Source: Kappaphycus alvarezii (taxonomy: Eukaryota; Rhodophyta; Florideophyceae; Gigartinales; Solieriaceae). From it: DNA of 64,000 bases. Both the position numbers and the translations under genes were made by a program. This document shows, in pieces, positions 22,176-54,480 of this stretch; the first letter of the stretch is position 1; every line of letters starts with the position of its first letter. The notes beneath the pieces were generated by a model, which was not told where the DNA came from, made no database searches, and saw only the letters and a program-made list of their open reading frames with translations. Where the stretch lies: assembly GCA_002205965.3 (NCBI GenBank), contig NADL03000034.1, positions 574,828 to 638,827 on the forward strand, read 5' to 3'.

Positions 22176-22531
22176 AAACAAAGTTTCAATTTTATGCTCC
22201 GAAAACCTACCAGAATTGTTAAAAACCCATTGATTTTTTAGATCCGACGTATCAGGCTGGACGTTTGGCACAAACTGGCGGGCAGTTTATATTTTATTGG
22301 CAAAAGGCTTCCATTTGCGATCAATTTGCACATCCGCATCCTCGACGTTAGTACCCTGCGCTGCGCTACCCACTTCGGGATACAGTCGAATCCCCAGCTT
22401 AAACTGTCTCTATCCATTTCTGATCGGCCGAAGCACCAAAATCCTTTCTCACCAACAGTTGATGATATTGCCAAGACCACAGGCTTTCACTGTCTTGCCG
22501 CTGGTGGAGTAACGCAAAAGCTGAACCAGTC

Positions 22532-25500
22532 ATGTCGTCATTCATCGACTGTGCCGCCTGTATTGAGGAGGCAATGCTACGTTACCAGGCCTCCTTCACA
22601 GAATGGGAAAAGGCTACCGAATATGTATTTCCGTCCGCCACTACCTCTGCCCGTGATGTCCCGGATTTAGGTGTCAAACTACGTGCCGTTCATTCACTTC
22701 CTAACGCCTTTCTCTCTCAATATCGCAACGTCCAGTACAGGAGTTTCATGGGTCTCTTTCCCCAAATCCAACGAGCGTGGCTAACTATTGACAACAAACT
22801 TTTTCTTTGGGCCTATGGAAATCGTGCCGATGGTCTCGGTGCTGAGCAGCTCCCTCAAAACACGGATCTCCTCGTTTACGACGAAATTCAGCAGATTATT
22901 GTGTCAGTCGCCCTCGTCAAGCCCCGTCCTAATGTTTTCGTCGAATCAGTTCCATATTTGCTCGCCGTTGCCACAGGTGTTGATGTCACTTTACTCGCTG
23001 TTTCCTTCTCGCCTTCTGGAGAAATCTCTCTTGCACCTACCCACTTTTTCGTCGCAACAGACGGCGTTCTCATGCTCAAGATACTCTCATCTGCAGACGG
23101 ACGCATATTCATGGCAGGTTCAGATGGCTCAATTCACGAAATGGTCTATGAAGCACACAACCACCCTGCCATGTTTAACTTTGTCTCCAATCGTGGAGCA
23201 AAGCGCGTTCGTCGCATCGTCCACACCAGATCGCCGTTACCGGACTACTTTCCCGCCATACTACGCTCCATGTTCACTCGCAGTGATGAGACCATCGACC
23301 TGGCTATTGATGACTCACGCGCTGCATTGTACTCCCTTAGTCAAGGTGGCATTTTGTCTGTCTACGACATTACTGACCCGCGCGTTACACGCCATATTCG
23401 CTCCGTCAATGTCGTTCATGCATCTCGCAGTTTGATTTCCTTTTCGGTCCCGCTTGGGGAACGCGAGTTTGTCTCGATTCATGCGCTTGGTGTTAACGAG
23501 TCAGTGACTGTTCACTTGATTGTCGTCACTTCCTTGGGAGAACGCATCTACTTTTCAACCGCCTCTGGGGCCTCTATGGCCGCTGTTGGAAGTATGCCAC
23601 TCAATCCTTCAAAGCCTACCCAGAATAGCACCACTGTCACTGGCCCAAAAACCCTGACATGCGTAGGGTATCGACCGAGTCCCGATCCGGGCATGAGTCG
23701 TTCGTCGCTCCCTTGTGTACATATGGCATACTGTGATCGTGGAGCATTCATTGTCGCCGATTTGAGGGAGACAGAGTCAGATAGACTCATATACGCCTAC
23801 CCAGACATCAGTCTGGTATCTCCAACCAATCGCGCAGATTCCCGTCCTGGGGCATCCAAGACTGCAGAAGTTGTCGTGGAGAAGAATCTCGGCAGAGATA
23901 GCGCTGTTGTGAGTGATGATGCCTTACACAGCCACCGATATCTTACTGACACACCCGCCAGTAACTCCCGAGGTCCTAGCGAAGAAGCGATGGGAGACCA
24001 GCAAGCTTCGCTCACACGAACATTTGCAATTGCAGAGGTCCAGACTGATGGCGATTCAAGCATAAATACTGGTTCTAACGTGCCGAGTGAACCACCAAGG
24101 TTCTTTTGGGTGTTGACCTCCACGTGCATCTGTCTCTATGAACGTATGCAGCCAGTCGATCGCTTGATGGAAATTTTTATGTCGCAGAGTATGGACTCGA
24201 CAGAAGTAGAGGCTTTCTTCAAAAGGTACGGAGTTGCAGAAGCATGCGCCATTTGCCTAAATATTGCAGCGTCCCAATCGGCATACTTTTCCGCAGCAGC
24301 AAGTGCGTTCTATGCATTTGGGGACGGTCCTCGTACTGAAGCTCGTCAAAGTTCCGGTGAGCAACCCTATCGAAAGACCCAGTCCAAGGATACCTACCTG
24401 GATCGGCCTTCGAACCCAGCTGTCACTGGAGTCGGGAATAGCGCACATAATGGACCCGCAAGAGCTTCGTTTGATGTTGGTCGGCCCTCTTTGCAATACC
24501 CTCTCTTTCGATCGTCAGGAGCGTTCGAGGGGACATGCATGTTCCTTGCAAAGACGCTCCAGCCGCTTTGGAGTCACAGTCTTACTTCAAGCCGGGACAA
24601 TAATTCCTACGAGACTTTGATGACGTCGAAAAAGGTGATCGATGATCTCAGACAAAAGCTTTCCGCTGTTGTATCTCTTCTTCGCAACTACTCACCTGGA
24701 AGTAGACGCCACGAAGATTCTGTCAATGATGAGCGCGGGCGGGCTGTATCCAGTGGCCCACGTCCGCACAGTTCACTAATTACCGCCGGTGCCACCCTGT
24801 CAGGGGAGAATGTTCCTCCTATTGAACAGAGGCTCAGGGGCTTCGAAAATGACCGATTTAGCAGCCCAATGAGGATATGTGATGACGACAGCGTGTTTGC
24901 AGGAGAATCGGCCTCCATGTTTTGCCTACGAGCTCTCTGTCAGAAGATAATCCAAGCATTGTCGTTGCTGCGAGTATTATCAGATCATCAACTGCATCGG
25001 GTTACTGCATCCATGTCCGAGCCACGGAGAGCAATGCTTTCAAAGATGACATTCCGTGACCTTGTCATTTCCGAGGAGGGCAAAGTGCTTGCGTCTTCAC
25101 TTATTGAGGCTATTATCAGCAGTCACTCGGATGCCCAGGGCGCTGTTCAGAGAATAGGTGAGATTTTAAGGGATAGGTGTGGAACATTTTTCCATGATTC
25201 CGACTTTGAGGTCCATCGCGGTTTAGCACTGTTACGAGAAGCTGTCAAAAGTGCTGGTATTGTGGACGAAAACAGTGGCGTTTACGACACGATGATTTCT
25301 ACTGGTCACGATGGGGACTATCTCGATCCAGATCGCTCGTTTTCATCGCCCTCACATGCCCATACCTTAGCTGAAGAGGCTGCGAAGATCTTGAAGTCTG
25401 TACCTGATCGAATTTTTGACATTCATGCTGTTTGCAAAGACTTAATGATGCTAAATGCTCTTCCTGCACTCGTTAGCATTGCTTTATCAATAGGAAAAGC

Positions 25501-26782
25501 TGCCGAAGCATCCTCCAATCTCAATCGGGCGAAGGTTGCTTATGAGAGCATTCTAACAGCATTCAGGTCCGCTGTGCCCAGAAACAGGGCCGACTGTTTT
25601 GAGCAACCATCTATAGGAGATGACTCAGCGTCATTAAGGGATGCAGCAATGAGTTTGGCGCTGAATTCGAAGTCACGGTTGTTTCTTGAGAAATTGTACG
25701 AATTTTTGTTAGAATCAAAAGTTGGTGAGGAGCTCCTCATGGAACATACCTCCCCGTTTCTAGAGAATTACCTCGAAGAAAATAACAAACTGGATCTTCT
25801 ATGGAGGTATTGTGTCAAACACAGGAGGTACATAGAGGCAGCGGGAATATTGCTGAGGATGGCAGAATTAGAGCCAGGGTTGACGCTCACCGAGAGAATC
25901 AAATATTTGTCATGCGCAGTTCATAACGCAAAAACTGCGGCCTCGAAGGACGACAACAGATCAACGCCGCTGCTTGCAGAGATACTGGACTACCTTGATG
26001 TTGCAAAGGTTCAGCTTCGGACTCGGGAAGAGCTGTCGTCATGTAACGCTCAAGGTAGAGAGAGAGAAAGGGCGCTTCAGCAACTGGATGGGATGATACT
26101 CCATGTTTCAGAGCTGTTCAACAAGTATTGCCGGCCATTTCAACTTCACGAAGCGTCACTGGCAGCACTTCATTGCAGTGGATATCGAGATGATGCGTAC
26201 GTGCGAGGACTCTGGAGGGCCATAGTGGAACGCGAGGTTGCTTCAAATAGGCCGCCCAATGCTGTGAGCGAAAAAATTATCCACCTTAGCCGCGACTTTT
26301 ATCCAAGCGATGTTGCATTTCCAACTCCGTATATATTGGATCTGCTCGAGAGAATGATATTTAGCAACAAGTCTAGCCCGTTGTGGAGGGACAGTGACGG
26401 CTGGGTTTACCGCACCTTAAGCCAAGTGGGAGTCCCCACTTGTGAAATAATTGATGGATATCGCCAAATCGTCGAAACCCCCCAGACAGTAAGTGACGGT
26501 GACATGTGGTCATGGACACAGGAGAGCGCTCAGTTACACATTCTGGTTGCTGTCGAGAGGGCGGTCAGTTCATGGATCACTAGGTCAAACGGAGGTGAGA
26601 CAAACTTAAAGGGTGAAGTGATCGGCAGCTGTCCCACAACACTACGGTCAGATGCTGAAAGAATATTGACAGTTATCTCTTTGTGCAAGAGCAGGATACG
26701 AGGGATGAGAGCTACATTGCGTGCAAACCTCGTCGAACGATTCGACGTTCTCGAGATGAAAATCAGCCCATTCGGCGAATAA
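22532..26782 (+). CDS. NUP155: Nucleoporin Nup155/Nup170
   Basis: A 1416-residue, intron-free gene for the large scaffold nucleoporin of the nuclear pore inner ring, which links membrane, Nup93 complex and neighbouring scaffold units. The N-terminal ~500 residues match the Nup133/Nup155-type beta-propeller: LRAVHSLPNAF, IQRAWLTIDNKLFLWAYGN, then DEIQQIIVSVALVKPRPNVF and GRIFMAGSDGSIHEMVYE. These blocks are highly characteristic of Nup155. The remaining ~850 residues are an alpha-helical solenoid with HAVCKDLMML, LDLLWRYCVKHRRYIEAAGIL and PTPYILDLLERM. Length is close to the human protein (1391). A low-complexity Ser-rich insertion at ~430-500 interrupts the propeller-to-solenoid junction. ATG at 22532 agrees with the homologous N-terminus. 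Overlapping frames in 22.8-23.4 kb are shadows. Confidence 0.95.
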   Translation: MSSFIDCAACIEEAMLRYQASFTEWEKATEYVFPSATTSARDVPDLGVKLRAVHSLPNAFLSQYRNVQYRSFMGLFPQIQRAWLTIDNKLFLWAYGNRADGLGAEQLPQNTDLLVYDEIQQIIVSVALVKPRPNVFVESVPYLLAVATGVDVTLLAVSFSPSGEISLAPTHFFVATDGVLMLKILSSADGRIFMAGSDGSIHEMVYEAHNHPAMFNFVSNRGAKRVRRIVHTRSPLPDYFPAILRSMFTRSDETIDLAIDDSRAALYSLSQGGILSVYDITDPRVTRHIRSVNVVHASRSLISFSVPLGEREFVSIHALGVNESVTVHLIVVTSLGERIYFSTASGASMAAVGSMPLNPSKPTQNSTTVTGPKTLTCVGYRPSPDPGMSRSSLPCVHMAYCDRGAFIVADLRETESDRLIYAYPDISLVSPTNRADSRPGASKTAEVVVEKNLGRDSAVVSDDALHSHRYLTDTPASNSRGPSEEAMGDQQASLTRTFAIAEVQTDGDSSINTGSNVPSEPPRFFWVLTSTCICLYERMQPVDRLMEIFMSQSMDSTEVEAFFKRYGVAEACAICLNIAASQSAYFSAAASAFYAFGDGPRTEARQSSGEQPYRKTQSKDTYLDRPSNPAVTGVGNSAHNGPARASFDVGRPSLQYPLFRSSGAFEGTCMFLAKTLQPLWSHSLTSSRDNNSYETLMTSKKVIDDLRQKLSAVVSLLRNYSPGSRRHEDSVNDERGRAVSSGPRPHSSLITAGATLSGENVPPIEQRLRGFENDRFSSPMRICDDDSVFAGESASMFCLRALCQKIIQALSLLRVLSDHQLHRVTASMSEPRRAMLSKMTFRDLVISEEGKVLASSLIEAIISSHSDAQGAVQRIGEILRDRCGTFFHDSDFEVHRGLALLREAVKSAGIVDENSGVYDTMISTGHDGDYLDPDRSFSSPSHAHTLAEEAAKILKSVPDRIFDIHAVCKDLMMLNALPALVSIALSIGKAAEASSNLNRAKVAYESILTAFRSAVPRNRADCFEQPSIGDDSASLRDAAMSLALNSKSRLFLEKLYEFLLESKVGEELLMEHTSPFLENYLEENNKLDLLWRYCVKHRRYIEAAGILLRMAELEPGLTLTERIKYLSCAVHNAKTAASKDDNRSTPLLAEILDYLDVAKVQLRTREELSSCNAQGRERERALQQLDGMILHVSELFNKYCRPFQLHEASLAALHCSGYRDDAYVRGLWRAIVEREVASNRPPNAVSEKIIHLSRDFYPSDVAFPTPYILDLLERMIFSNKSSPLWRDSDGWVYRTLSQVGVPTCEIIDGYRQIVETPQTVSDGDMWSWTQESAQLHILVAVERAVSSWITRSNGGETNLKGEVIGSCPTTLRSDAERILTVISLCKSRIRGMRATLRANLVERFDVLEMKISPFGE

Positions 26783-41956: not shown

Positions 41957-42508
41957 CTATGCTTGGGTTCCCTCGAAGTCACTAACCTCAAGACTGATTC
42001 GGTGCTGCTGAAACATCGTACGTGAGAGAGGCTTTGTAGGTATGTCTTCAGTCATCTCACCCGTTGGGCAATACGTTACTCGAATGATTCCCTCGGTGAC
42101 CTGTTCTCTGACAAAATTGTGCCTGATGGCAACATGCTTGGCGTGCCTAATGCCTTCGTTAGACCACACGATGGCTTTCTGATTGTCCTCACGTACTTCG
42201 GTGGGACTTATCTGCTCGCAGTCTAGGTCTCCAAGAAGATACCTGATCCATATGATAGACTTTGCACATTCACTCAATACGCAGAACTCTGCCTCAGTGG
42301 TAGAAAGGGCAACTGATCCCATCTTAACAGTCCTCCACGACATGGCAGAGTTTCCAATCAAAAACAAAGTTCCAGTAGTAGACCTCATATCTGCGTGATC
42401 CCCTGCCCAATCTAAATCGCTGTACGCTATTAGGGTAGGATCAGCTTCTCTCCCAAACCGAAGACAAAATGTCTTGGTCCCCTGCAAATACCGTAATATC
42501 CTCTTCAA
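41957..42508 (-). pseudogene. copia RNase H domain
   Basis: A 183-codon frame with the complete RNase H core: LIAYSDLDWAGD (first Asp at 31), VALSTTEAEF (Glu at 72) and VREDNQKAI (Asp at 108). It ends with PTGEMTEDIPTKPLSRTMF, the standard copia C-terminus. This is the best-kept part of the element; all catalytic acidic residues are present. It cannot be expressed normally because the upstream polyprotein is broken. Confidence 0.85.
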
Positions 42509-42568
42509 TGCAACCCAGTGAACGTCGCATGGAGTTGAGGAGTAACGACAGAGAATAGAGACTGCCGA

Positions 42569-43450
42569 TTATATGTCCGGTCGAGTACTCGTGAACAAGA
42601 ACAAGAGGCAACCGAGTAGCTCTTGATTCTGCCCCCTGTCCACAGCACTTCCCTTTGATGAAACAATTTCTCGCAGAGCTCCTTCACTCATTAGAGTTGA
42701 CACCGGTTTGCACGACGCCATGCTAAAGCGCTCGAGCACTTGCGTAACGTAGCGTGACTGTGACAAACATACGCCAGCAGCATCTTTCTTGAACATTATG
42801 TCCAGAAATGGGCCTAGTGTACCAATATCCTTCACATACAAGCGCTCCGATATCTCCCTTCTAACCTCCAAGACATCATTAGCCTTTTGTCCGATGAGTA
42901 CAATGTCATCAGCGTACAGCAAAACCCACAATGATCCCCTTCGATACAAAAAATCATCCGAACGTGATTGCACAAATACCGGAGTCGTCATTACTGTTCC
43001 CCACTTATCATACTAAAGCCTCGGGGCTTGCTTTTGCCCGTAAAGTCCCCGTCGGAGTCTGAGAGTCTCGTTCGGTTTGCAGAGATAAAATACCTCTGGG
43101 GCTTTGATGTACAGCTCTGCGTCTAGTTCACCGTGAAGGAAAGCTGTATGAACGTCCATCTGCTTGATGACGAAAACCTTCTTGATGGCAACTGTAAGGC
43201 AAGTTCTGACCGTAGAGAAATCAACTATAGGGGGGAGAGTATGTTGAACGTTTCATTGTAGGTACACTTTCGCAACAATTCTATCCTTGTACCTGATTAC
43301 CTTACCTTCATCTTCTCTTTTATGCAAAAAATAACCCTCTTCAGTAACGCTCGTACTGCCTGTGGCCGACACACCACCTCCCATGTTGCATGAATGAGCA
43401 TTGAGTCAATCTCTGAATCGATGGCCTCCCGCCATTTGTCTGCATCATGT
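42569..43450 (-). pseudogene. copia reverse transcriptase domain
   Basis: The palm begins near 43.2 kb with VIKQMDVHTAFLHGEL (catalytic Asp) and continues LYIKAPEVFYLCKPN and RRGLYGQKQAPRL. A TAG then stands where Trp is normal (about 43014-43016). The frame 42569-42991 carries motif C, LLYADDIVLIGQ, then MFKKDAAGVCLSQSRYVTQVLERF. Upstream, 43.3-43.45 kb has WREAIDSEIDSMLIHATWE, the copia pre-RT block, in another frame. A frameshift separates it from RNase H near 42.54 kb. Confidence 0.85.
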
Positions 43451-43656
43451 CGTTCCAACGCCTGCTTCATAGTGGTAGGTTCGGGGTCTGTATAACTTGA
43501 TATCTCTCCATTTGAGATCGCTGTCAGCCCAGCTTACGGGGAGTAATACTCTGGTGCTTTCCGTTCTCTCTGGAGGTAACGAGGTTCCTCGAGTTCAGTG
43601 CACTGCAAGGGACGGTGCGTGAGCAATTATCCTATTCCGCTGGTGTTCAAATCAGG

Positions 43657-44565
43657 CTACACCCCCATCTTCCTCATCAGTATCGCCGCCATTCTCGGGA
43701 GTAGGGCCTGTCGAAGTATTTTTCCCTGTAGTCGAAACTTGAGTGCCAGTGGTTGTGCTTGGGGGTTCTGCCTCGTCCTCTTGCAGAAGCGGAGGAGCTT
43801 CCTCTTCCTCGTTCCAATCTTTTGCCGAAAACTTTTCCTCGACAAATGCAACATCTCTCGCCAGTACTGCGACATGCAGGGACGGTATCCACAGCTTATA
43901 TTGACTGTTCTCATAAAAAGAAAGCAAAATTCCGATTTCTGACTTGGGTTCCCACGTAGGTTCTTTGGTATATGATACCATACGACACATCCAAAGACAC
44001 TCAGGTATCCGACATCGGGTACTTCCCCGGTCATGGCCTCATGAGAGGACTTAATCTTATCCTGTGGGCTTGGGAAGAAGTTTCGCAAGCTTACAGAATG
44101 GACAACTGCCTCAGCCCAGAATACTTTGGGGAGTGAGGCATGCTCTGGCATGGACCTTGCAGTCTCGACGATTGTCCTGTTGGTTCTATTTGCTAGGCCA
44201 TTCAAGTTCGGAGAGTACGGGCGAGGCATGGAATGCTCGATTTCGTTCTCGGCAAGATAGTCCTTCATAGCAATGTACTCTCCACCATTATCGCTCCTCA
44301 AACGCCTAATAGTACAGTCATACTTCCTCTCCAGCCACGCTTTGAACAGGTTGAACTTCGCAAGAACTTGGCTCTTTTCAACGATTAGAATGACAACCAC
44401 GTACCCAGAATAGTCATCGACGAAAGGCACAAAATATCTGGCTTTCGAGAAGGAATCCACTGACACTGGGCCACAAACGCCTGAATGGATTACAGCAACC
44501 TTATGCTTTGTCCTGTGGGTTTTTGTGCGGATAGTCTGTTTTGTCTGCTTGCTGCGCATGCGCAT
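43657..44565 (-). pseudogene. copia integrase domain, two catalytic residues lost
   Basis: A 302-codon frame with the integrase core: VIHSGVCGPVSVDSFSKARY, FVDDYSGYV, LRSDNGGEYI and SPNLNGLANRTNRTIVETAR. In this family the triad is D in H-x-D-x-x-G-P, D in SDNGGE and E in NG-x-A-E-R. Here the first is Gly (residue 29) and the third is Asn (residue 126); only Asp92 remains. After ~residue 215 the frame leaves the homologous one, which continues in 43652-43990 (RMVSYTKEPTWEPKSEIG). Confidence 0.85.
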
Positions 44566-46100
44566 ACGTCCAGTTTCAAGTTGGGAGGCCTGCTGTCAAG
44601 GCCTTTCACTATCCCTCCCACTTTCAACTTCCTGATCGAGTCCATGTTTGCGTGCCCAAGACGATTGTGCCACAGTTTCATGCCCGAGTCACTGCCAGTA
44701 TCTATGAACTGTACTGCGGTGTGTGACGACTCATCTCTTTCCAGGGAATACAAATTTACATGGTAGACCCCTCCAATGGCCTTACCAACAAACTGAATGA
44801 CACCTTCCTTAGTTCTGCTGCAAGTGTTCCTTCCAAGTTCACTCTGAATCAGTCCATGCACAGGCCTGCACATGATAGTAGTTTTTGGTGGAGACCTGGG
44901 ACAGGCAGCAAGTTCACGAATAAGAAGGATTATCTCATATTCATTGTATGGACGAAGGTAGGTTCTTACCCTTAGATCTCCCTGATTTGTAGCAAACAGT
45001 GCCCTTCCATCACCGAGCACTATGCCGCGCCGTTCAATTTCCCGTAACCCTTCTAGCCATTCCGCGTTCGAAAACATGTGGTTTGACGCTCCAGAGTCTA
45101 GCAGAAACGTGTGATTACCGTCAGGGGTAGTACCATTCCCGGCTACAAGGAAGGCAGTCTCATTTTCACTGTTGCAGATGGAGTCACGCACTGCCTTGTT
45201 AGATTCTGTGCCGGCCGTGGGGCGGCAATCATGCCCGGATCTGAGTTTGTTCCTTAGGGCAGTGAGTAGCCGGGGAGGGTGAGATGCCCCTCCTGAGCTG
45301 TCCCTCCTGCCAGTTTCATCGAAAAAGTTAGCTCTCCTTTCACTTGCCCTCCTGTTAGGGCAGTTCCTTTTGAGGTGACCGATCTTGTGGCAAGCGAAGC
45401 ATCTGCGCCTCTCCGATTCTTCCCCTCCTAATCTTCCTGGTCGAATGCTATTTCTGCTCCTAAAACCCGCCGTCAAGGCATGGCCATGATCTTCTCCACG
45501 AAGTTTGCTTCCACATCCGCGCATCAATTGCTCTTCATACTCTTTCAAGAGTGTCGATGCCACTGTCTCCCGATTTAGGGATCCTGGCCTAGTCTGCAGT
45601 GATGCAATGAACGGCCCAAACGGAGAACATGTCTTTCCTCCAAAAGCCGCTAGCAACATAGCAACCTGAATGTATTTTGCGATCTTACTCTCCATTGCCT
45701 CCAATCGGTTGAATGTTTGCTCAAAGGAGTCAACAAAATCCTGCATGGACTCACCACCATACTTCATTGCCGAGAAACTTGTCCGCAGCTGGACTTTACT
45801 GGCTGTGTTTGACACGGCGTACCTGTTTTGAGTCCTCTTGCACATTGCATACGGATTTCCTTTGACTGGAGTACAGAGCCTCAGTGGGCGATCGCTGAGA
45901 CTTTGAATCAAAATTGCACGGGCAGTTGCAATATCCTTGCGATCTACCGCACTGAGCTCCCTCCCTTGACCCAGTACGTCCACCTAGATGGTCCGAAGAA
46001 CTGACTTTGCCTCGAGTGGAGCTTCAATTCTCGCATACCACAGCTCAAAGTACTCTCCGTGATGACCAGGAAACTTGAAAACCTTCTTATCTTGCTCCAT
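44490..46100 (-). pseudogene. copia gag-protease and pre-integrase region, with in-frame TAG
   Basis: The natural start is the ATG at 46100 (MEQDKKVFKFPGHHGEYFELW). A TAG at 45984-45986 interrupts after 38 codons, and the frame then runs open to 44490. Within the 497 codons after the stop are a capsid-like helical region (MQDFVDSFEQTFNRLEAM), a CCHC zinc knuckle CFACHKIGHLKRNC at residues 195-208, the protease motif LLDSGASNHMFSN with Asp296, and the pre-integrase motif LWHNRLGHANM. The order is typical of copia. The overlap with the integrase frame at 44490-44565 marks a frameshift. Confidence 0.88.
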
Positions 46101-46718: not shown

Positions 46719-48060
46719 TTAAAAAGGAGCTTTTGGTACGCATGATGCGGAATGAACTGTAAAAGGTCGACTCATAAAGCTGTATTGACTCATAGGTTAC
46801 TTTCCTTACGTTAGTGCATTCTGCTCTGTTTAATGTTTTTGTTTTAACCATCGGGTTTTGAGAGCTTAGGCCACTTCCAAAAGTATAAACAACTAGGCCG
46901 CATTCAATTTGAAATATTTTGCGAATGTATCCCCCGGTGGTAGCGAAAATTCCCCTTCTACATTCAGGCCCTATAGAAGAGTCGTGCAGTGGCACGATAC
47001 GACCGTGCAAGTTTACATTTCTCAAGAAAAGTGTTGCAGGCGTCACGATTTCGGCGGCCTCTGGGCCAATCTAGCGCGGAACCTTTAAAAAATAATGGTT
47101 TTTGTACAAACGGCCAGCCGGAGGCGAGCTTGCGAACTCTTCTCTGGCTCGTTATTTACTACTTAGCGTGAAATAACCTAGTATGGTTGTCCGTACATGG
47201 GATGTCGCAATTTTCTTGTTGCCAACTGTGTTAATTGCCATTGCCTTGTACTAACCCGGCTGGAGATTATTTGATCCCGAAGATGGGCGATCGAAAACTT
47301 CCGATTTGGATTCTTCACAAATCCAATGAAACGTAAGACCTTCTCTAACAAGGCCTACACAGCCAAAAGGGACGAAAATAAAGTATCACCACATACAATT
47401 CTACCTGATCCGAACTATGGTTCCGAAAGCGCCATCATCGTTCTTTTTGCTTCTAAACATATCGGAATTGAACCTTCATTGTCTGCAGTCGACTTAAAAA
47501 ATCTTCATTGTGATAATTTCTCAACCTTTTTCACACACTGCAGTCCAAAGCTTACACCCATTTTCAGGTTTCCTGTCAAGGGCGACGTATTGTGTAAGTC
47601 CTTTTTGAATCCACTTCCCGCCAATTTCATACTACCTAGAAATGATTTCATCAAAACTAATTGAATATGAAGGATTGACATGACGGAGGCGATACTCTCC
47701 AATAGCTTCGAGAAAGTCTTTTAGTAGAATCTAGCGCCTTGAAGAAATGAATAATTCCTCAATTGCAAGAGGTTGAAATTCAAAGAGAGATATGTTACTC
47801 CGATGAGCCCCAAACCGTACAATGGCATTGTATTGCCAATAGTTACGGTCTGAATGTATTTGGCCAGAAATAAATTACCCCAAAAGCCCCTAATATCGCT
47901 AAAATCTGAGCATGTCATTAAAGTCAGAACCCAAAAAAATCTCAGAACTTTAGCTGCTGTGCATGAAATCAAACATCGAATCAAACAATCACAAAAATTT
48001 CCAAACCGACGTTTGAAGAGCAAAAAAATTGTAGAAAGCAGTATCATCACAAACAAACAC
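46719..48060. other. No recognisable gene
   Basis: A+T-rich. The plus frame 47326-47664 (112 codons) and the minus frame 46585-47046 resemble no family. Sequence at 47.7-48.06 kb is low-complexity A-rich. Confidence 0.35.
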
Positions 48061-48124
48061 ATTTATACTGCTAAGAATGCTCACTACAGTGGGCATTCTA
48101 GATTTTGCCAAAACGTCAAGCACG

Positions 48125-48146
48125 TATAAAATGCGCACTAAGGTGA
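48125..48146. repeat. Left inverted end of putative element
   Basis: ATAAAATGCGCACT matches in reverse complement the sequence AGTGCGCATTTTAT at 51956-51969. The arm itself is a half-decayed palindrome (GCGCACTAAGGTGAG). Confidence 0.6.
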
Positions 48147-48360
48147 GTATATAGGGGATTTAAAAAGGGATCTGCTCAACCGCACATTGCATGCTGCTGT
48201 TGTTAAAGATATTCCTATTCCGCCGAAAGGTATGTAGCAGCCGGTGATTGGTTTCTGATGTATGTCCAACATCTCAAATACGCAAAGGACTGCATACGTT
48301 ACGACCCCTTTCGTCGAGTCGTTACCAGTCCCCACTCAATCCGTTTTCACCCCCCTCAAA

Positions 48361-51300
48361 ATGCAAACCGCTGCGTCTGCTAGCGATGTAATTGTTGGGG
48401 ACCGTTTTCGATGGCGTACTCATATCTGTGGTTGTGGCTGACGAGAAAAAGTACGGAGTGGACGCGGTAGCGGCCGGCAAAAACTGGAAGGAAGGCAGGG
48501 AGACCTCTCGTAAGGATGGAGAATTTTTACAGCTCCCGGCCAAGACGTTATCATGGAGAAGGCGTTCGCCGATGAGATAATTGCAGAACGGAATCGTCTA
48601 TTCTATGGTTTCTCTGTAAGCCTGCTCGGCACGCAAAGACGCGCTAACGGTACAGATGGAACTAGATCAGGGCACATTGTTCTCATGATGGAGGATGTTT
48701 TAAAGCAGTGTCGGAAATGGTTGACCGGGATTTTTTGCGTTACATGGTCTTTTTAAGCGCCACATGGGCACAGACGACGTGTATAGCTCCGTCGCAGTCC
48801 TTCTCCATTCGTATTTGACAGGACTGAGCCCCTGAGAAATCGCTTTATGTTCTCGAAGCTCTCGGGTGCAATCCGACATCTCTCGAGCGGGTTAGTTTCA
48901 TCAGCATCAAAATTCCGGCGCACCCCGAGACTGGGCGCGGCAACCTGGGAGATAACGTTTGTGGATCATGGAGGGATGAAGTTTTCTTTCTGGACACATT
49001 TGAGAATACTACCTACGACATGTCCCGTAAGATATTTCTAACACCTGTTCATACCTTTGCGACGTTAGATGACGATGTTTACGGGACTAGAGCCAAATAA
49101 AATCAGGTCAAATACCTTAGCTCAAGAAAAACGGAGAGAGTGGGACATTTAGCAGATGATATAGCTGACGTCCTCTTCTGTGTGACACTCTCCGTCCGTT
49201 TTCTCCGCCGTGGAGAGCCACAGGCGGAAAACGTTGAGAAGCTTCTAGGAATTTTATCAGAAGGACGTGGATATCAGAGCCCGCATGGTCAAGTAATTAC
49301 CGCAGAGAAGTTATACAGTGATATGGCGCTTATCAGTACGTTTCTGGAGCTAGTTATAAGTTCTATATATTCACAATGCCTCAGCAACTCCTGCTTTGCT
49401 ACCGTTCGGGGGGAATAATTCTTAAACGCTGCAAGAAACGATGAAGAGGAGGATTGCGAGGAAATTGGCTAGCAGAAAGTCGACAGTGATAACTATAGCT
49501 ATTTCCGCTCCCTCTATACCTTGAGGAGAGGAATGATTCGCATAAAGTGATTAAAGAGGGTCACAATGCGGAGTCTTTGGTATCAAATGGTTCTCGGACA
49601 AGGTTTTATAGGCCGAGGCGATTTGTTTTTGAATGAAAGAGGTGATCTTTTCCCCAAATCTTTCCTTGCATTGAGGCTTGTGAAGTCGTTTGCCGGGAAC
49701 GGTGGAAGATCTGCAGTAAATACCGTGGCAGTGAGGGAGCAAGGAAGTAAGAAATACTACAACGTGCTTCGCTTCCTTTACCGAGTTCCCTCTTCTATGC
49801 CGGAGAATCTAGAGTCATGGATAGCAGTTCACCGCACTGAACCAGTAGCTCACATGCTTTTATGCAAAAAAGACGATTACGGGCGCTTGGGCACACCACC
49901 TGTCACCTCCACTAGCGACAAGGATTTCATCGAGGGAATGATTCTAGGAGACATCAATGTAACGATGATTGCACAGAGGTGTTCTGAATGGATTGGACTG
50001 AGGCAGTTTCGAATTACAGGTACCGGCGCCGGATAGACCATCCTAAATGACAATGCAGTTCGCGAGCTTATTGGAATGCAGTCGCGGGAGTCTACAGCGC
50101 AAGAGGTGATTTTGTCTGGGAAGCTAAGTCTATTTGTTAGTCCTTGGTTCTCAACTGCAAGGTTAACCAAAGAAATGATGAGAGGCACAGAAAACGAGAG
50201 CGCGGGGTTTGCTGAACTATCTGCAAAGCCCTTCATAAAGGATGTGTATGAGTGCGACATGGTTTCAGCATTCTCCCTTGATGGGGTCGCGTTAATTTAC
50301 TCTGCGAAGTTAGGGCTTTGTGGAGACGACTCCCCCTCACTCGCGTCTGTCAAGGTCAAGACCAGTGTGGCTAAAAGTTAGCCTAGACAGGGCTGTTGGA
50401 ATAGCTACGTCGGACATTATTACTTGCAGTGTTGGATAGAGGCGTTTTCTAGACAATTTTACTGAGGAAAACGTCTGTAAAGTGATGTACGAAATGATTT
50501 TGGTTTCATTGATTTTTGTTGTGTACGTGTCCACAGCGGAAGTTGGCGTCATGTAAATTCTTGTCGCGAAGTGTCCTTCACGAGTGCAAAGAAGCACTGC
50601 ACAGAGGCGCAGAATCAATTTTATCCTGGGCACAAGACGAAGACCCAGTGGTGCCACAATTCGCAGATCGCGATTCCCGCCGTATCATTAAAGCACAACT
50701 TCGTTTCTGGAGAATCATAAACATGCATGATAAAGGTAAAGGCCCCTTCCCCCCTCTAAAGCTCTTCAAACACGCTTCAAAAATTCTCTATTCAAAGACG
50801 AAAGAAAATATAGACGGCAGCGCGAAATGGCGACCTATTTTGCGCCCACCCACTTCATCATTTCGCTGGGAACAAAAACTCTGTCACAGACGTTAAAGTC
50901 TGTCATTTTGAAGGTATTTAGAGCTTAGAGGATGTCACCAAAGGAGCTGCTGGTATCATAGGAATACTTTGACGGCCTGGACGGGTATCGCGACGCTCTC
51001 AACCACGCGCAGTCCCTGGCTGACTTTTGCTTCAACTTCGAGAGAGAGTTGTTAGCACACGCATACAAGATCGAACGTAGTCACGAACCCCCCGGTACAG
51101 CTGCAGACACCGCAGATCTCATTGGCGAGGCCAATAGGCTAATTTTATTGGTCTGTAGGAGATGTAGCGCACGCCTCAGATCCTTTAACTTCCCGGATAT
51201 TGTTAAGCTGTGTCCAAAAGTGAATCCCAACAAGCAACGGCAAACACCAGGATCTAAGAGGTACTTTGCCTTATGCGTAAGTGTGGCCAAGTGACGCCGT

Positions 51301-51610
51301 ACGATGATCAAGTGCACTGCATGCACCAGCATCTGTTCGTCAGTGTGAACACAGGGCAGCGTAAAAGCTGCCAGGGGGAGGTTTGCACGAAGCGGCAAAA
51401 CTTATACCAAAAGAAAGTGAATCCTCAATAGCTGAACAAAATCACAGCATCGGCAGCGCTGCAGAGCCTCGCCCACGTCGGAGGTGGAGTAGACAAACAG
51501 GGCAAGATGCTGAAGGAGCTGACGTGCAGAATATGGAACTAACGCTTGAAATACCTCAAAGAAAAAGACGAATGCACGAAAGGTGGCCTTCCACGGTACC
51601 TACTGTCTGA
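48361..51610 (+). pseudogene. Large decayed ORF, transposase/nuclease-like, family unknown
   Basis: Coding-like pieces run in order on the plus strand: 48361-48756 (start MQTAASASDVIVGD), a stretch at 48.76-49.1 kb in shifting frames ending THTFATLDDDVYGTRAK, then 49140-49418 (GQVITAEKLYSDMALISTF), 49566-50036 (NVLRFLYRVPSSM, LESWIAVHRTEP, GLRQFRITGTGAG), 50076-50381, 50516-50896 (FPPLKLFKHASKILYSKT), 51049-51294 and 51383-51610. Together they imply a protein of ~1000 residues. TLDDDVYG and ITAEK are acidic motifs of the sort used by DDE transposases. AFSLDGVALI followed by SVKVKTS resembles a PD-(D/E)xK nuclease signature with Glu changed to Lys. Both assignments are tentative. Many stops and frameshifts: not functional. 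Confidence 0.5.
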
Positions 51611-51732
51611 AAGTAGAATGGAAGAGTCACCTGCTTGTAGTACCTAGCTGATCCAGGGCTGTGCAAAAACAGCGGCACTCGACCCACGGCCACAAAAAGA
51701 ATCTATTCGTAGTCACAAAAGGCATTAAACGC

Positions 51733-51972
51733 GCAAATAATGGCCACTACAGTGCGTATTTGCAAATCTCCACCTGATCTTCAGGTGCCAAAGTTCCGAG
51801 CTTTGACATTCCCAAATGCTTGGAAGCAATCTCCAGATAACTCTGAAATAACTCAACATCATTGGAACACGTGATTTCTTTGACACATTCTCGGGAGGCT
51901 ACTTGAGAGAGAGATTCGGCTTAGGTATTGGACTTAACATACGTTTCGCACTAAAGTGCGCATTTTATGGGT
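51733..51972. repeat. Right-end palindromes of putative element
   Basis: Two palindromes of the theme rATGCnCACTnnAGTGnGCATy: one at 51728-51757 (GCGCAAATAATGGCC...), the other at 51948-51969 (CGCACTAAAGTGCG, a perfect 14-base palindrome with a two-base centre), followed by CATTTTAT. Confidence 0.6.
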
Positions 51973-54480
51973 ACATTAGGGATATGAAATACGGAAATTT
52001 TTTCAAACCTTGGGGAGTACAAGCTGTAAAATTAAGCAAAACACTGGGCCGCAAAAATTTCAAAGTCTTGATTTGATAGATGTACTGAAATTCACCATTA
52101 TATCGCTTCCAATCCGCTATTTGCCATTTGCAACTGCTTTTGGCCACTCAGATTCCGTTATTAATGTTCTTAAACTTTTAAAATGAGGTTTTCGGTTTAA
52201 ATTGAGCCTTAACTCGGCTTGTACTTAGGCTCATCCCAACATCAGATTCCGCAGGAGCATCAGTCTCCACTGACGCATTTCCTTGGACCGGCCTTTCAGC
52301 TTCTTGTCTCCAGAGCTAATTGAATTGGGCATCAAACCTGCTATTTCCTCTAGAGAAGGAACTTCCCCTTTTTTGATACTCGATAAATGGATTGAAATTT
52401 GTTATCAAACATCGAGTAACACAGTTACTGACAACAATTATTTGGATCCGTCCGCAATTGCGCACTCTCTGCATTTCTACGACTGTTTTGGACAGGATTT
52501 TTGTCTCCCAACTAGATCCATAGAGCCTTCTGCGTCAGATATGAGTAATTCCGCTTTCATGTAAACCTTATTTCAAGGACGAGACGTCTTTCGTTTGACT
52601 TAACCATTTTGAAGTGATTTCGAGTGATATTGAGAGAGTGAGACGGTTTTCAGGGACAGTAAACGTGCAAAAACTCTGAATGAAAACATTGCACCCCTAG
52701 AAGGAACCTACATCTAGCAGAGCAGGCCTGCTGCACGGGCGATACGTGCCGGTTTTTGATACTGAACCCTGAAGATCACAGATCCGCTGTGTGGTCTAAC
52801 AACCTGTCCATGGGTCTTTTACAATGTTCTCAATTCCGAGGGAGCGAGTCATTGTAAATGGGCATTATGATGTAGCGGCGTTACACATTACTCCAGTACA
52901 CCGCAGACACTTCCGTATCGATGGTAGGATACACCAGTAGGAATGCGGCGCCGGGCCCTTTGCGAAATACGAGGCCGCGTATCCGGTTCCTCACTTCGGC
53001 GGCAGCGCGATGGTTGGGATTCAGGGAACGAGCCTATAATTCGTCGTTCCAGGGTTCCCAGGCCCACTTCTCCTTCAAAGTCCACGGTGATCACCATATA
53101 CACTACAGAAATGTCTCTCAACGGACTGACCGCCATGAAGACTCATACCTTTTGGGCCGTGGCACTACATAAGGGCTATTTTTTTCAGGGTAATCTTCAC
53201 AGTAGATACTTCAATGCAGAAAACTTACGCATCTTGTTCTGCCGTAATTGAATGTGTGTCATAAGGGCCCATTCAAGATCAAGATTCAGATGGTGGGTAG
53301 ATGCATTGTAGTGGCTGCTAGCGATGAGAATATGGTACGATGATGGCGGTCCATAGCTGTAGAAGCTGTATGTCGGTAAGGAAGTTGTTTCGGAGGACTT
53401 ATATGGTCTGGATAGCAGCTGTATGGGGCGTAGTGGTCGGCACTGGGGGATGTGGGAACCGGTGGAAAACCCAGCGAAGTGCAAGGCGACGCGGGTGCCC
53501 CTTGAGGATGTGGGAGGTGTGGAAGGATGGAAAGGACTAAATACGTGTCGTGGCGGATGCGTGGCAGGGTCAAAAGCGACGTTGAAGGCAGCATGAGGGG
53601 CTATTGTGGGTGTTCCAGACAGAAATATAAAGTTGAGATGGGTGCGACGGGGGAGGGGTTGTGATAGTTTTGTGGGGTACCAAGTTTGCTCAGTGCGTTG
53701 TGATGTATTATATGTTGAAGATATGTCCTTATCGCCTCTGTATTTTTGAAGTTGCTACCATTCTTTTCTTCTGTAAGGAGTCTTGCTGTTCGAGTTATGA
53801 GAAAGTATCTGTCTCGATATTAGTTTCATCTCTTGATGTTTTATTTTGATTGCGTGGAAGGTAGCATTAGCTCCAAGGGAGAGATTATATTTTGAACCCG
53901 CAATCCTGACGGGATTGTTGTCTATCCTTTGGATTAGTACTCATACTGAATTATGGTGACTGGATTTTTTTGCCGCATTTGAAGCTTTAATGGCTTTATT
54001 TGGCCTCGAACAGAACTGTCAAGTACAAGGTAGTGAAATCACACAGTATAAGTACGGCCACCTTCATGAAGGTAAAGAACTTGACCATCTACAGAGCCAA
54101 CGAAAAAGGTCTGCACGTATCAGTGTAATGTGCGGGCTTCCATGGTCTTCTGATTTCCTTTGCCCATCTGGGTGGTGGCATGGACCTTGGAGAGAAATTT
54201 TGAGGCTTGTCGGTGGAACACAATGTTGAGATCTGGGATTTGGAAGATGAATCGTACTCAAGATAAGTGGATGGTGTTGAAAGTACCTTTCCAGCGTAAA
54301 AAGGATTGATGAATTCCGCTTAAAAGATAGGTCGGTGCATACCCTCCGAATATATCTTTTAAAAACATTTTTTGTCCACCCTCGCATTCACTGGATTTTT
54401 TCTGACTCACGAAGACGAATAATTATCTAATTATGAATAATTTTTTGCTCTGTGAATTAGTCACCTTGTGTCACTATATC
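51973..54480. other. No confident gene; G-rich degenerate tract inside
   Basis: 53.28-53.66 kb is a G-rich, weakly repetitive tract similar in style to 39.64-40.28 kb. Frames at 52283-52564, 52888-53251 and 53990-54229 resemble no family. A plus-strand fragment near 54.07 kb reads VKNLTIYRANEKGLHVSV and looks coding-like, without identity. Confidence 0.35.

What the first reader, a model, noticed from the sequence alone, without database searches (positions are those of the whole stretch)
48071..51972. Decayed 3.9 kb element with palindromic inverted ends and a large transposase/nuclease-like protein
Inverted 14-base ends and four related palindromes of the theme ATGCnCACTnnAGTGnGCAT bracket a single ~1000-residue broken reading frame. 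I see DDE-like acidic motifs (TLDDDVYG, ITAEK) in its first third and a possible PD-(D/E)xK signature (LDGVALI ... KVK) in its second half. A transposase joined to a nuclease domain would be unusual. The protein is not a family I can name with confidence.
Basis: partly seen in the sequence, partly recalled or inferred. Interest (0 to 1): 0.75.

Follow-up and report, generated by a model that had tools for sequence, protein, structure and literature searches.

The report
Transposon with nuclease inside its transposase
This is a worn-out copy of a large family of jumping genes, probably in a red alga, whose cutting-and-pasting enzyme resembles piggyBac but seems to carry a second DNA-cutting domain in the middle of its first one, a combination I found no earlier report of.

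Summary
Window 48059-51985 is a decayed DNA transposon with near-full copies elsewhere in the genome and many protein relatives (132 matches from 83 scored of 1144 candidates). Better preserved relatives (L041-L043) encode a DDE transposase, a lambda-exonuclease/YqaJ nuclease (over Pfam's cut-off at 4 loci, all of this family) and a Cys/His-rich C-terminus. The likely third catalytic Asp lies after the nuclease, aligned to piggyBac's GGVD, so the nuclease appears nested inside the transposase core. Ends are CCCTA...TAGGG beside ATAT: 258 sites against 17 control; TTAA is not enriched. Four ~20-bp palindromes sit at fixed distances from the ends; letters change between families but agree within an element. 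In piggyBac the Cys-rich dimer binds such a palindrome. It fails two piggyBac membership tests (PF13843, TTAA), and support for kinship is mixed, but it probably works like one. Nuclease-bearing transposons are known (KolobokE, Dada, ISL2EU); this combination looks new. What the nuclease does is inferred.

The parts
48059..51985 (+). whole decayed element, tip to tip (ATAT/ACAT included)
   Evidence: common limits of copies; right tip matches relatives' ATATCCCTAMTGC; P1, P2 and P4 offsets 20/74/24 as in relatives
48059..48070 (+). left tip ACATTTATACTG, read as a diverged ATATCCCTACTG
   Evidence: alignment by eye with the right tip and relatives; palindrome offsets agree
51974..51985 (-). 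right tip, reads ATATCCCTAATG inwards
48077..48096 (.). palindrome P1, ATGCTCACTACAGTGGGCAT
   Evidence: inner 18-mer at offset 20, 2 mismatches
48131..48150 (.). palindrome P2 (diverged, inner 18-mer 4 mismatches)
   Evidence: offset 74; exact palindrome in copy L005 at C625:1092718
51740..51759 (.). palindrome P3 (diverged, 4 mismatches)
   Evidence: offset 228 from right tip; relatives 226-231, one weak at 232
51944..51963 (.). palindrome P4 (2 mismatches)
   Evidence: offset 24 from right tip
48460..48726 (+). N-terminal part of the transposase, broken
   Evidence: tblastn with L041 and L043 proteins, 27-30% identity
48837..50378 (+). DDE core (D1, D2) and most of the YqaJ nuclease, one frame with stops
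   Evidence: tblastn with L042, 34% over 537 columns
49062..49085 (+). TLDDDVYG, presumed first catalytic Asp (D1)
49296..49310 (+). ITAEK, decayed form of TADRG (D2)
49974..50369 (+). nuclease motifs: QRC..LRQFRITGT, MMRGTENE (Glu), SLDG (Asp), SVKVKT (relatives VEIKT; that Glu is lost here)
   Evidence: PF09588 in relatives
50570..50881 (+). end of the nuclease region and presumed D3 motif KTKENIDG (Asp codon 50813-50815)
   Evidence: tblastn 45% with L042 (50570-50881) and 62% with L043 (50747-50881); motif at 50807-50818
50875..51249 (+). region after D3, broken
51250..51430 (+). remnant of the C-terminal Cys/His-rich domain, badly broken (by eye)
   Evidence: searches compared with A6; inference

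Best explanation
A cut-and-paste DNA transposon that works like piggyBac. The transposase binds each tip (CCCTA) through its core and, through its C-terminal zinc-binding domain acting as a dimer, the palindromes beside the tips (two per end, 54 bp apart at the 5' end and about 205 bp apart at the 3' end); it cuts at ATAT sites and inserts into new ATAT sites. Between its second and third catalytic Asp it carries a lambda-exonuclease/RecE (YqaJ) type nuclease, at the place where piggyBac has its insertion domain. The nuclease most likely trims DNA set free during transposition (flanking donor ends or the non-transferred strand). Shown by sequence: a two-domain protein, the order of its domains, the ends, the ATAT preference, the palindrome geometry, a conserved nuclease active site. 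Supported but not proved: the third Asp and kinship with piggyBac. Inferred: the chemistry, the palindromes as binding sites, the substrate of the nuclease. The window copy is dead.
For: Copies: 8 DNA matches, the window itself included; 132 protein matches from 83 scored of 1144 candidates. Nuclease: PF09588 over cut-off at 4 of 4 matched loci, all this family; active-site residues Glu 14/16, Asp 14/16, Glu 18/18, Lys 17/18, Gln 16/17 readable rows of 60, the ExK pair strictly above 97% and 95% of 719 columns. Transposase: DDE_Tnp_1 E 0.026; D1-D2 distance 78 residues in L042 if D108 is D1, equal to D268-D346 of piggyBac (PMC7351741, passages); a PDB search with the 60-row profile puts the piggyBac transposase 6x67 first of two hits, E 0.021, aligned on the D3 segment; profile comparison with seven ordinary piggyBac proteins of the same genome gives E 8.4e-4 for that one pair, gapless over 49 columns on the same Asp, and its best D2-region alignment is on piggyBac's D2, E 0.064. 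C-terminus: zf-Tnp_2 E 0.0019 (L041) and C1_2 E 0.002 (L043), both below cut-off; a C1-like fold is described for the PiggyMac domain (PMC8086355, passages). Ends: ATATCCCTAMTGC 258 sites vs 17 control, TTAA version 7 vs 12; 8 alignments from 4 loci run across L043's joined flanks without an insert, ATAT intact in 3 of 8. Palindromes: in 10 elements picked by tips only, at most 2 mismatches in P1 9/10, P2 10/10, P3 9/10, P4 3/10 (P4 9/10 at most 3); shuffled ends 0.2-2.1%; within-element identity 0.81 vs 0.64 between, 0 of 2000 permutations.
Against: No piece given to Pfam matched PF13843, and none of the 119 PF13843 matches listed for this genome overlaps by eye the family places listed (116 of 951 candidates scored). 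The first profile comparison with ordinary piggyBac found nothing (prob 0.2%); the whole-protein profile reached only E 0.069 and the profile of 655-890 E 0.0031 at prob 10%; family profile against single piggyBac proteins scored below zero bits; single-sequence alignments were not significant (72, 32 and 208 of 500 shuffles); two narrower profiles put 6x67 behind unrelated proteins (E 0.65, fourth; E 0.41, second). In the loose alignment the presumed D3 is Asp in only 11 of 16 rows. ATAT as a 4-bp duplication is not settled: elements with GTAT at one or both ends (C622, L031, L037) fit a 2-bp TA duplication or none as well or better. 5 of 56 palindrome sites have 4 mismatches, two of them in the window. 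No structure was predicted and no function tested.
Confidence: 0.65

Rival explanations
1. It is a separate, so far unnamed superfamily of DDE transposons, not a relative of piggyBac; the CCCTA ends, AT-only palindromic target, GVD motif and zinc domain are convergent or shared only through the wider IS4-like group.
For: No PF13843 match; failed or weak comparisons; TTAA not used.
Against: D2 and D3 align in register with ordinary piggyBac, 6x67 ranks first in the PDB for the full profile, same kind of termini and the pairing of palindromes with a Cys-rich domain.
Confidence: 0.27
2. [quoted passage not shown]
For: The same pairing of domains is described, and Kolobok is reported from rhodophytes (PMC9587614, passages).
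Against: Those passages give Kolobok termini 5'-RR, TTAA duplications and a catalytic Glu; here termini are CC, TTAA is not enriched, the likely third residue is Asp, and the nuclease is not downstream of the core if D3 is right.
Confidence: 0.08
3. The nuclease domain is only a structural or DNA-binding insert without catalysis.
For: No activity shown; the window copy has lost the Glu of the ExK motif.
Against: ExK and Gln are among the most conserved residues of the family.
Confidence: 0.2
4. Chance: a pseudogene without element structure; the palindromes are accidental.
For: In the window alone the palindromes are not clearly above shuffles.
Against: Copies with shared limits, 258 vs 17 tip sites, fixed palindrome offsets in 14 elements.
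Confidence: 0.01

Closest known systems
piggyBac transposase / piggyBac superfamily (6x67, PF13843)
   Same: D1-D2 distance of 78, D3 motif xGVD aligned, CCC termini, palindromic AT-only target, C-terminal zinc-type domain, palindromic ~19-bp internal repeats near the ends (PMC7351741, passages)
   Different: ATAT not TTAA; no PF13843 match; a YqaJ nuclease in the stretch where piggyBac has a beta insertion domain (residues 372-433); two palindromes per end
KolobokE (Kolobok superfamily)
   Same: DDE transposase with a lambda-exonuclease-like nuclease (PMC9587614, passages)
Dada transposons of Laccaria bicolor and Ectocarpus siliculosus
   Same: a nuclease domain nested inside the DDE core after the second Asp (PMC3706591, passages)
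   Different: that nuclease is DEDDy DnaQ-like, the third residue is Glu, targets are small RNA genes
ISL2EU (PHIS superfamily)
   Same: a transposon that encodes a YqaJ nuclease (PMC4482050, passages)
   Different: YqaJ is on a separate ORF in most autonomous candidates, AT duplication, GG termini

Membership tests
piggyBac superfamily | match to PF13843 (DDE_Tnp_1_7) over cut-off | tested here: not met
   no hit for the window pieces or for L041-L043; the PF13843 places listed in this genome are others
piggyBac superfamily | TTAA target and duplication | tested here: not met
   TTAACCCTAMTGC 7 sites vs 12 control; ATAT version 258 vs 17
piggyBac superfamily | DDD triad with D3 in a GGVD-type helix | tested here: inconclusive
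   in register, E 0.021 in the PDB search and 8.4e-4 for one profile pair; weaker or nothing
piggyBac superfamily | C-terminal cysteine-rich domain | tested here: inconclusive
   zf-Tnp_2 19.1 bits vs cut-off 24 in L041, 14.4 in L042, 11.7 in L043; Cys/His in 6-11 of 8-11 readable rows per position
piggyBac superfamily | CCC termini | tested here: met
piggyBac superfamily | palindromic internal repeat bound by the C-terminal domain | tested here: inconclusive
   palindromes present; binding not testable here
YqaJ / lambda-exonuclease nuclease family | PF09588 over cut-off | tested here: met
   4 loci of the family, best 36.6 bits vs 22; window pieces have no hit and L043 only 18.1 bits
YqaJ / lambda-exonuclease nuclease family | PD-(D/E)xK active site | tested here: met
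   Asp 14/16, Glu 18/18, Lys 17/18 readable rows; the window copy lost one Glu
Kolobok (KolobokE) | TTAA duplication and 5'-RR termini | tested here: not met
Kolobok (KolobokE) | similarity to Kolobok transposases | not tested
   no KolobokE sequence at hand
ISL2EU | YqaJ on a separate ORF and GG termini | tested here: not met
   one open frame of L042 holds the DDE, nuclease and Cys-rich regions; termini CC
Dada | DEDDy exonuclease nested in the core | tested here: not met
   the nuclease here is YqaJ type

The most novel reading that the evidence does not exclude
A lineage of piggyBac-like transposons in which an active RecE/lambda-exonuclease nuclease has become the insertion domain of the DDE core, and in which four palindromic sites at fixed distances evolve together with the transposase's zinc domain, so that each family has its own private end code.
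Probability: 0.4. Interest if true: 0.75.

Novelty: new variant of a known kind. Interest (0 to 1): 0.6.

Why it matters
Several unrelated transposon groups carry exonucleases, and why is open (the PHIS paper says the function of the extra ORFs, YqaJ included, is unknown; PMC4482050, passages). Here the nuclease seems to lie inside the transposase core, is conserved at its active site, and comes in many families in one genome, some with long open frames, so its role in excision or repair could be tested directly. The palindromes at fixed offsets with family-specific letters give a natural series for studying how a transposase and its ends change together.

Tried and rejected
Pfam on single window pieces: nothing useful. 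PDB sequence search with one protein: nothing. Relatives in viral contigs: 27 pattern matches, none confirmed. NCBIfam: one weak zinc-domain hit below cut-off. Rfam and tRNA scans of the window: nothing. The early idea that this is an ISL2EU was dropped once DDE and YqaJ were found in one frame. A 4-bp ATAT duplication was my first reading of the empty sites; I widened it to 'ATAT target, duplication of 4, 2 or 0 bp' because ATAT repeats with period two and because the C622 copy reads GTAT...ATAC. The second empty-site query (L042 flanks) did not complete. No structure was predicted: structure prediction names only loci from the search for related loci, the DNA search or the look-up of encoding contigs, and the useful relatives came from the genome search, so I did not send them. 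The metagenome and prokaryote collections were not scanned.
Full report
Setting. The window is G000:C34:574828-638827 of an unnamed 336-Mb genome in 884 contigs. Phycobilisome proteins are over Pfam's cut-off at 3 places (4 candidates), so the host is probably a red alga; this is inference.

The element and its copies. A DNA search with the element found 8 matches, the window included: C598 (79%), C625 (76%), C641 (76%, without its left end), and partial ones on C2, C767, C656 and C736. C598 and the window are alike over about 6.4 kb, beyond the element on both sides, so they are one old insertion copied with its surroundings; C625 and C656 share flanks and are a second insertion, and C641 differs beyond its right end. 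Sequence common to independent copies begins near 48071-48073 and ends near 51983-51985. Relatives with sharp tips (below) place the left tip at 48059: ACATTTATACTG stands where they read ATATCCCTACTG, and the palindromes then fall at the offsets seen elsewhere. The three other near-full copies of this subfamily are broken too.

The protein. A search with the window's main frame gave 132 matches from 83 scored of 1144 candidates, a lower bound. Better preserved relatives are L041 (open frame of 975 codons, then 232), L042 (958) and L043 (867, then 394). Against them the window is collinear from 48460 to 51249 in three frames, E down to 7.8e-109. Pfam sees in L043 DDE_Tnp_1 (E 0.026) and YqaJ (E 0.0034), and at its C-terminus C1_2 (E 0.002); in L041 zf-Tnp_2 (E 0.0019); all below cut-off. 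PHROGs adds RecE-like exonuclease at E 1.4e-5 in L043. Searched the other way, YqaJ is over its cut-off at 4 places in the whole genome (12 candidates, all scored), best 36.6 bits against 22, and all four lie in members of this family, 39-61% identical to L042 in pieces. The PD-(D/E)xK residues are conserved: Glu 14 of 16 readable rows, Asp 14/16, Glu 18/18, Lys 17/18, Gln 16/17 (60 rows in the alignment; the others do not cover these columns). Glu and Lys of ExK stand strictly above 97% and 95% of 719 columns. In the window copy this Glu is lost (VKVK), and so is the second catalytic Asp (AEK).

Where the nuclease sits. In L042 numbering D1 is among 107-109, D2 at 186 (Glu in L042 itself, Asp in 17 of 19 rows), and the nuclease spans about 380-570 (my conversion of the Pfam span 592-779 in L043). 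A profile of the 60 fragments searched against the PDB gives two hits up to E 10; the first is the piggyBac transposase 6x67 at E 0.021, aligned from our SFYSKTKAGVDGATQQ to its MYYNQTKGGVDTLDQ, which carries D447 (D268, D346, D447 from PMC7351741, passages). Comparing family profiles with seven ordinary piggyBac proteins of the same genome, the segment around this Asp (660-730) aligns without gaps over 49 columns on the same Asp (E 8.4e-4 for one pair, probability 24%), the D2 region aligns best on piggyBac's D2 (E 0.064), and the nuclease region gives E 0.17 in an unrelated place. The Asp is present in 9 of 9 rows that cover it in alignment A6 (by eye), though in 11 of 16 in the looser A2. 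If it is D3, the nuclease lies between D2 and D3, where piggyBac has its insertion domain. Results against: searches (nothing; family profile against single piggyBacs below zero bits, though two of three weak hits fall in the stretch just after D3; 6x67 at E 0.65, fourth, and E 0.41, second, behind unrelated proteins; 72, 32 and 208 of 500 shuffles reach the score), whole-protein profile E 0.069 and 655-890 profile E 0.0031 at probability 10%, no PF13843 match.

Ends and target. ATATCCCTAMTGC occurs 258 times against 17 for the reversed pattern; among the places listed there (about 100) I count by eye 25 facing pairs 2.4-5.2 kb apart. TTAACCCTAMTGC: 7 against 12. BTATCCCTAMTGC: 52 against 36, part of it from repeats on C43, C308 and C680. 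L043 sits in what looks by eye like a Tc1-like repeat; its joined flanks with one ATAT matched 24 places, 15 of them across the join by their ranges; I aligned 8 matches from 4 loci and all 8 run across the join without an insert, with ATAT itself intact in 3. Because ATAT has period two, this fits a duplication of 4, 2 or 0 bp. Of about 11 ends found in protein-search loci without asking for ATAT, two have GTAT (L031, L037), with ATAT at the far end. C622, from the BTAT search, reads GTAT...ATAC, which a 4-bp duplication would not give. Ordinary piggyBacs here read CTAT...ATAG in two of four copies, the same ambiguity.

Palindromes. In L041, L042, L043, in 10 further elements chosen only by paired tips, and in the window, 18-base palindromes begin 20 and about 74 bases from the 5' tip and 24 and about 229 from the 3' tip; 51 of the 56 sites have at most 3 mismatches, the other five (two in C3:155026, one in L043, two in the window) have 4. 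For the 10 tip-chosen elements: at most 2 mismatches in P1 9 of 10, P2 10 of 10 (one at 82), P3 9 of 10, P4 3 of 10 (9 of 10 with at most 3). Shuffled ends reach 2 mismatches in 0.2-2.1% of 1400; the shuffles do not allow for the choice of the better orientation that I made for the real elements. The letters differ between families (TGATCAGTATACTGATCA, TGATCGATATATCGATCA, TGTTCACTATAGTGAACA, TGCACTGTATACAGTGCA, the window's TGCNCACTNNAGTGNGCA) but agree within an element: mean identity 0.81 within, 0.64 between, 0 of 2000 permutations; some elements are close relatives, so these are not 14 independent cases. In piggyBac the two Cys-rich domains bind together to one palindromic 19-bp internal repeat (PMC7351741, passages), so the palindromes here are most simply such sites. 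That is inference.

Mechanism. I take it as a cut-and-paste element. The conserved ExK site argues that the nuclease cuts DNA. The Dada authors suggest that their nested exonucleases process cleaved 3' ends, and the Kolobok authors that KolobokD's exonuclease degrades intermediates (PMC3706591 and PMC9587614, passages); trimming of freed DNA is the corresponding guess here. Lambda-exonuclease relatives usually work 5' to 3' (recalled), which would suit opening the donor site for annealing repair.

Novelty. Ten literature searches were made. Their listings, some cut short (15 of 228, 12 of 35, 10 of 72), and the passages opened in six papers (PMC4482050, PMC8086355, PMC7351741, PMC2872659, PMC9587614, PMC3706591) showed no report of this combination. 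Subscription papers and Repbase reports are not held, so it may be known there. Precedents are KolobokE, Dada and ISL2EU as listed. I file it as a new variant of a known kind: it works like piggyBac, and is not shown to be a member.

Noticed in passing
window 46722-53142: An old duplication about 80% identical lies within C598:1642241-1649131 and contains the same insertion.
   Followed up: partly
window 41960-45983, - strand: Broken frames that look like a Ty1/copia retrotransposon (zinc knuckle, integrase, RNase H by eye; recalled, no profile run).
   Followed up: no
window 22466-26779, + strand: One open frame of 1438 codons, looks like a nucleoporin by eye (not tested).
   Followed up: no
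L044-L047: Ordinary piggyBacs (PF13843, 119 matches listed in the genome) have CCCCTCGTCTGTA tips flanked by CTAT, ATAT, GTAT or GAAT rather than TTAA.
   Followed up: partly
C622:10750-14844 (L078, L079): An element with the same tips and palindrome layout but GTAT at both tips, which does not fit a 4-bp duplication.
   Followed up: partly
C43, C308, C680: CTATCCCTACTGC recurs at steps of about 7.8-7.9 kb on C308, C680 and part of C43, perhaps a tandem repeat or another element.
   Followed up: no
L014, L027, L031: More distant relatives (L014 35%, L027 37% alike in protein; L031 43%) share the window's palindrome theme (TGCGCAGTTAAGTGCGCA and similar).
   Followed up: no
L043 flanks: L043 is inserted in a repeat that looks Tc1-like by eye and has copies in both orientations side by side.
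   Followed up: partly
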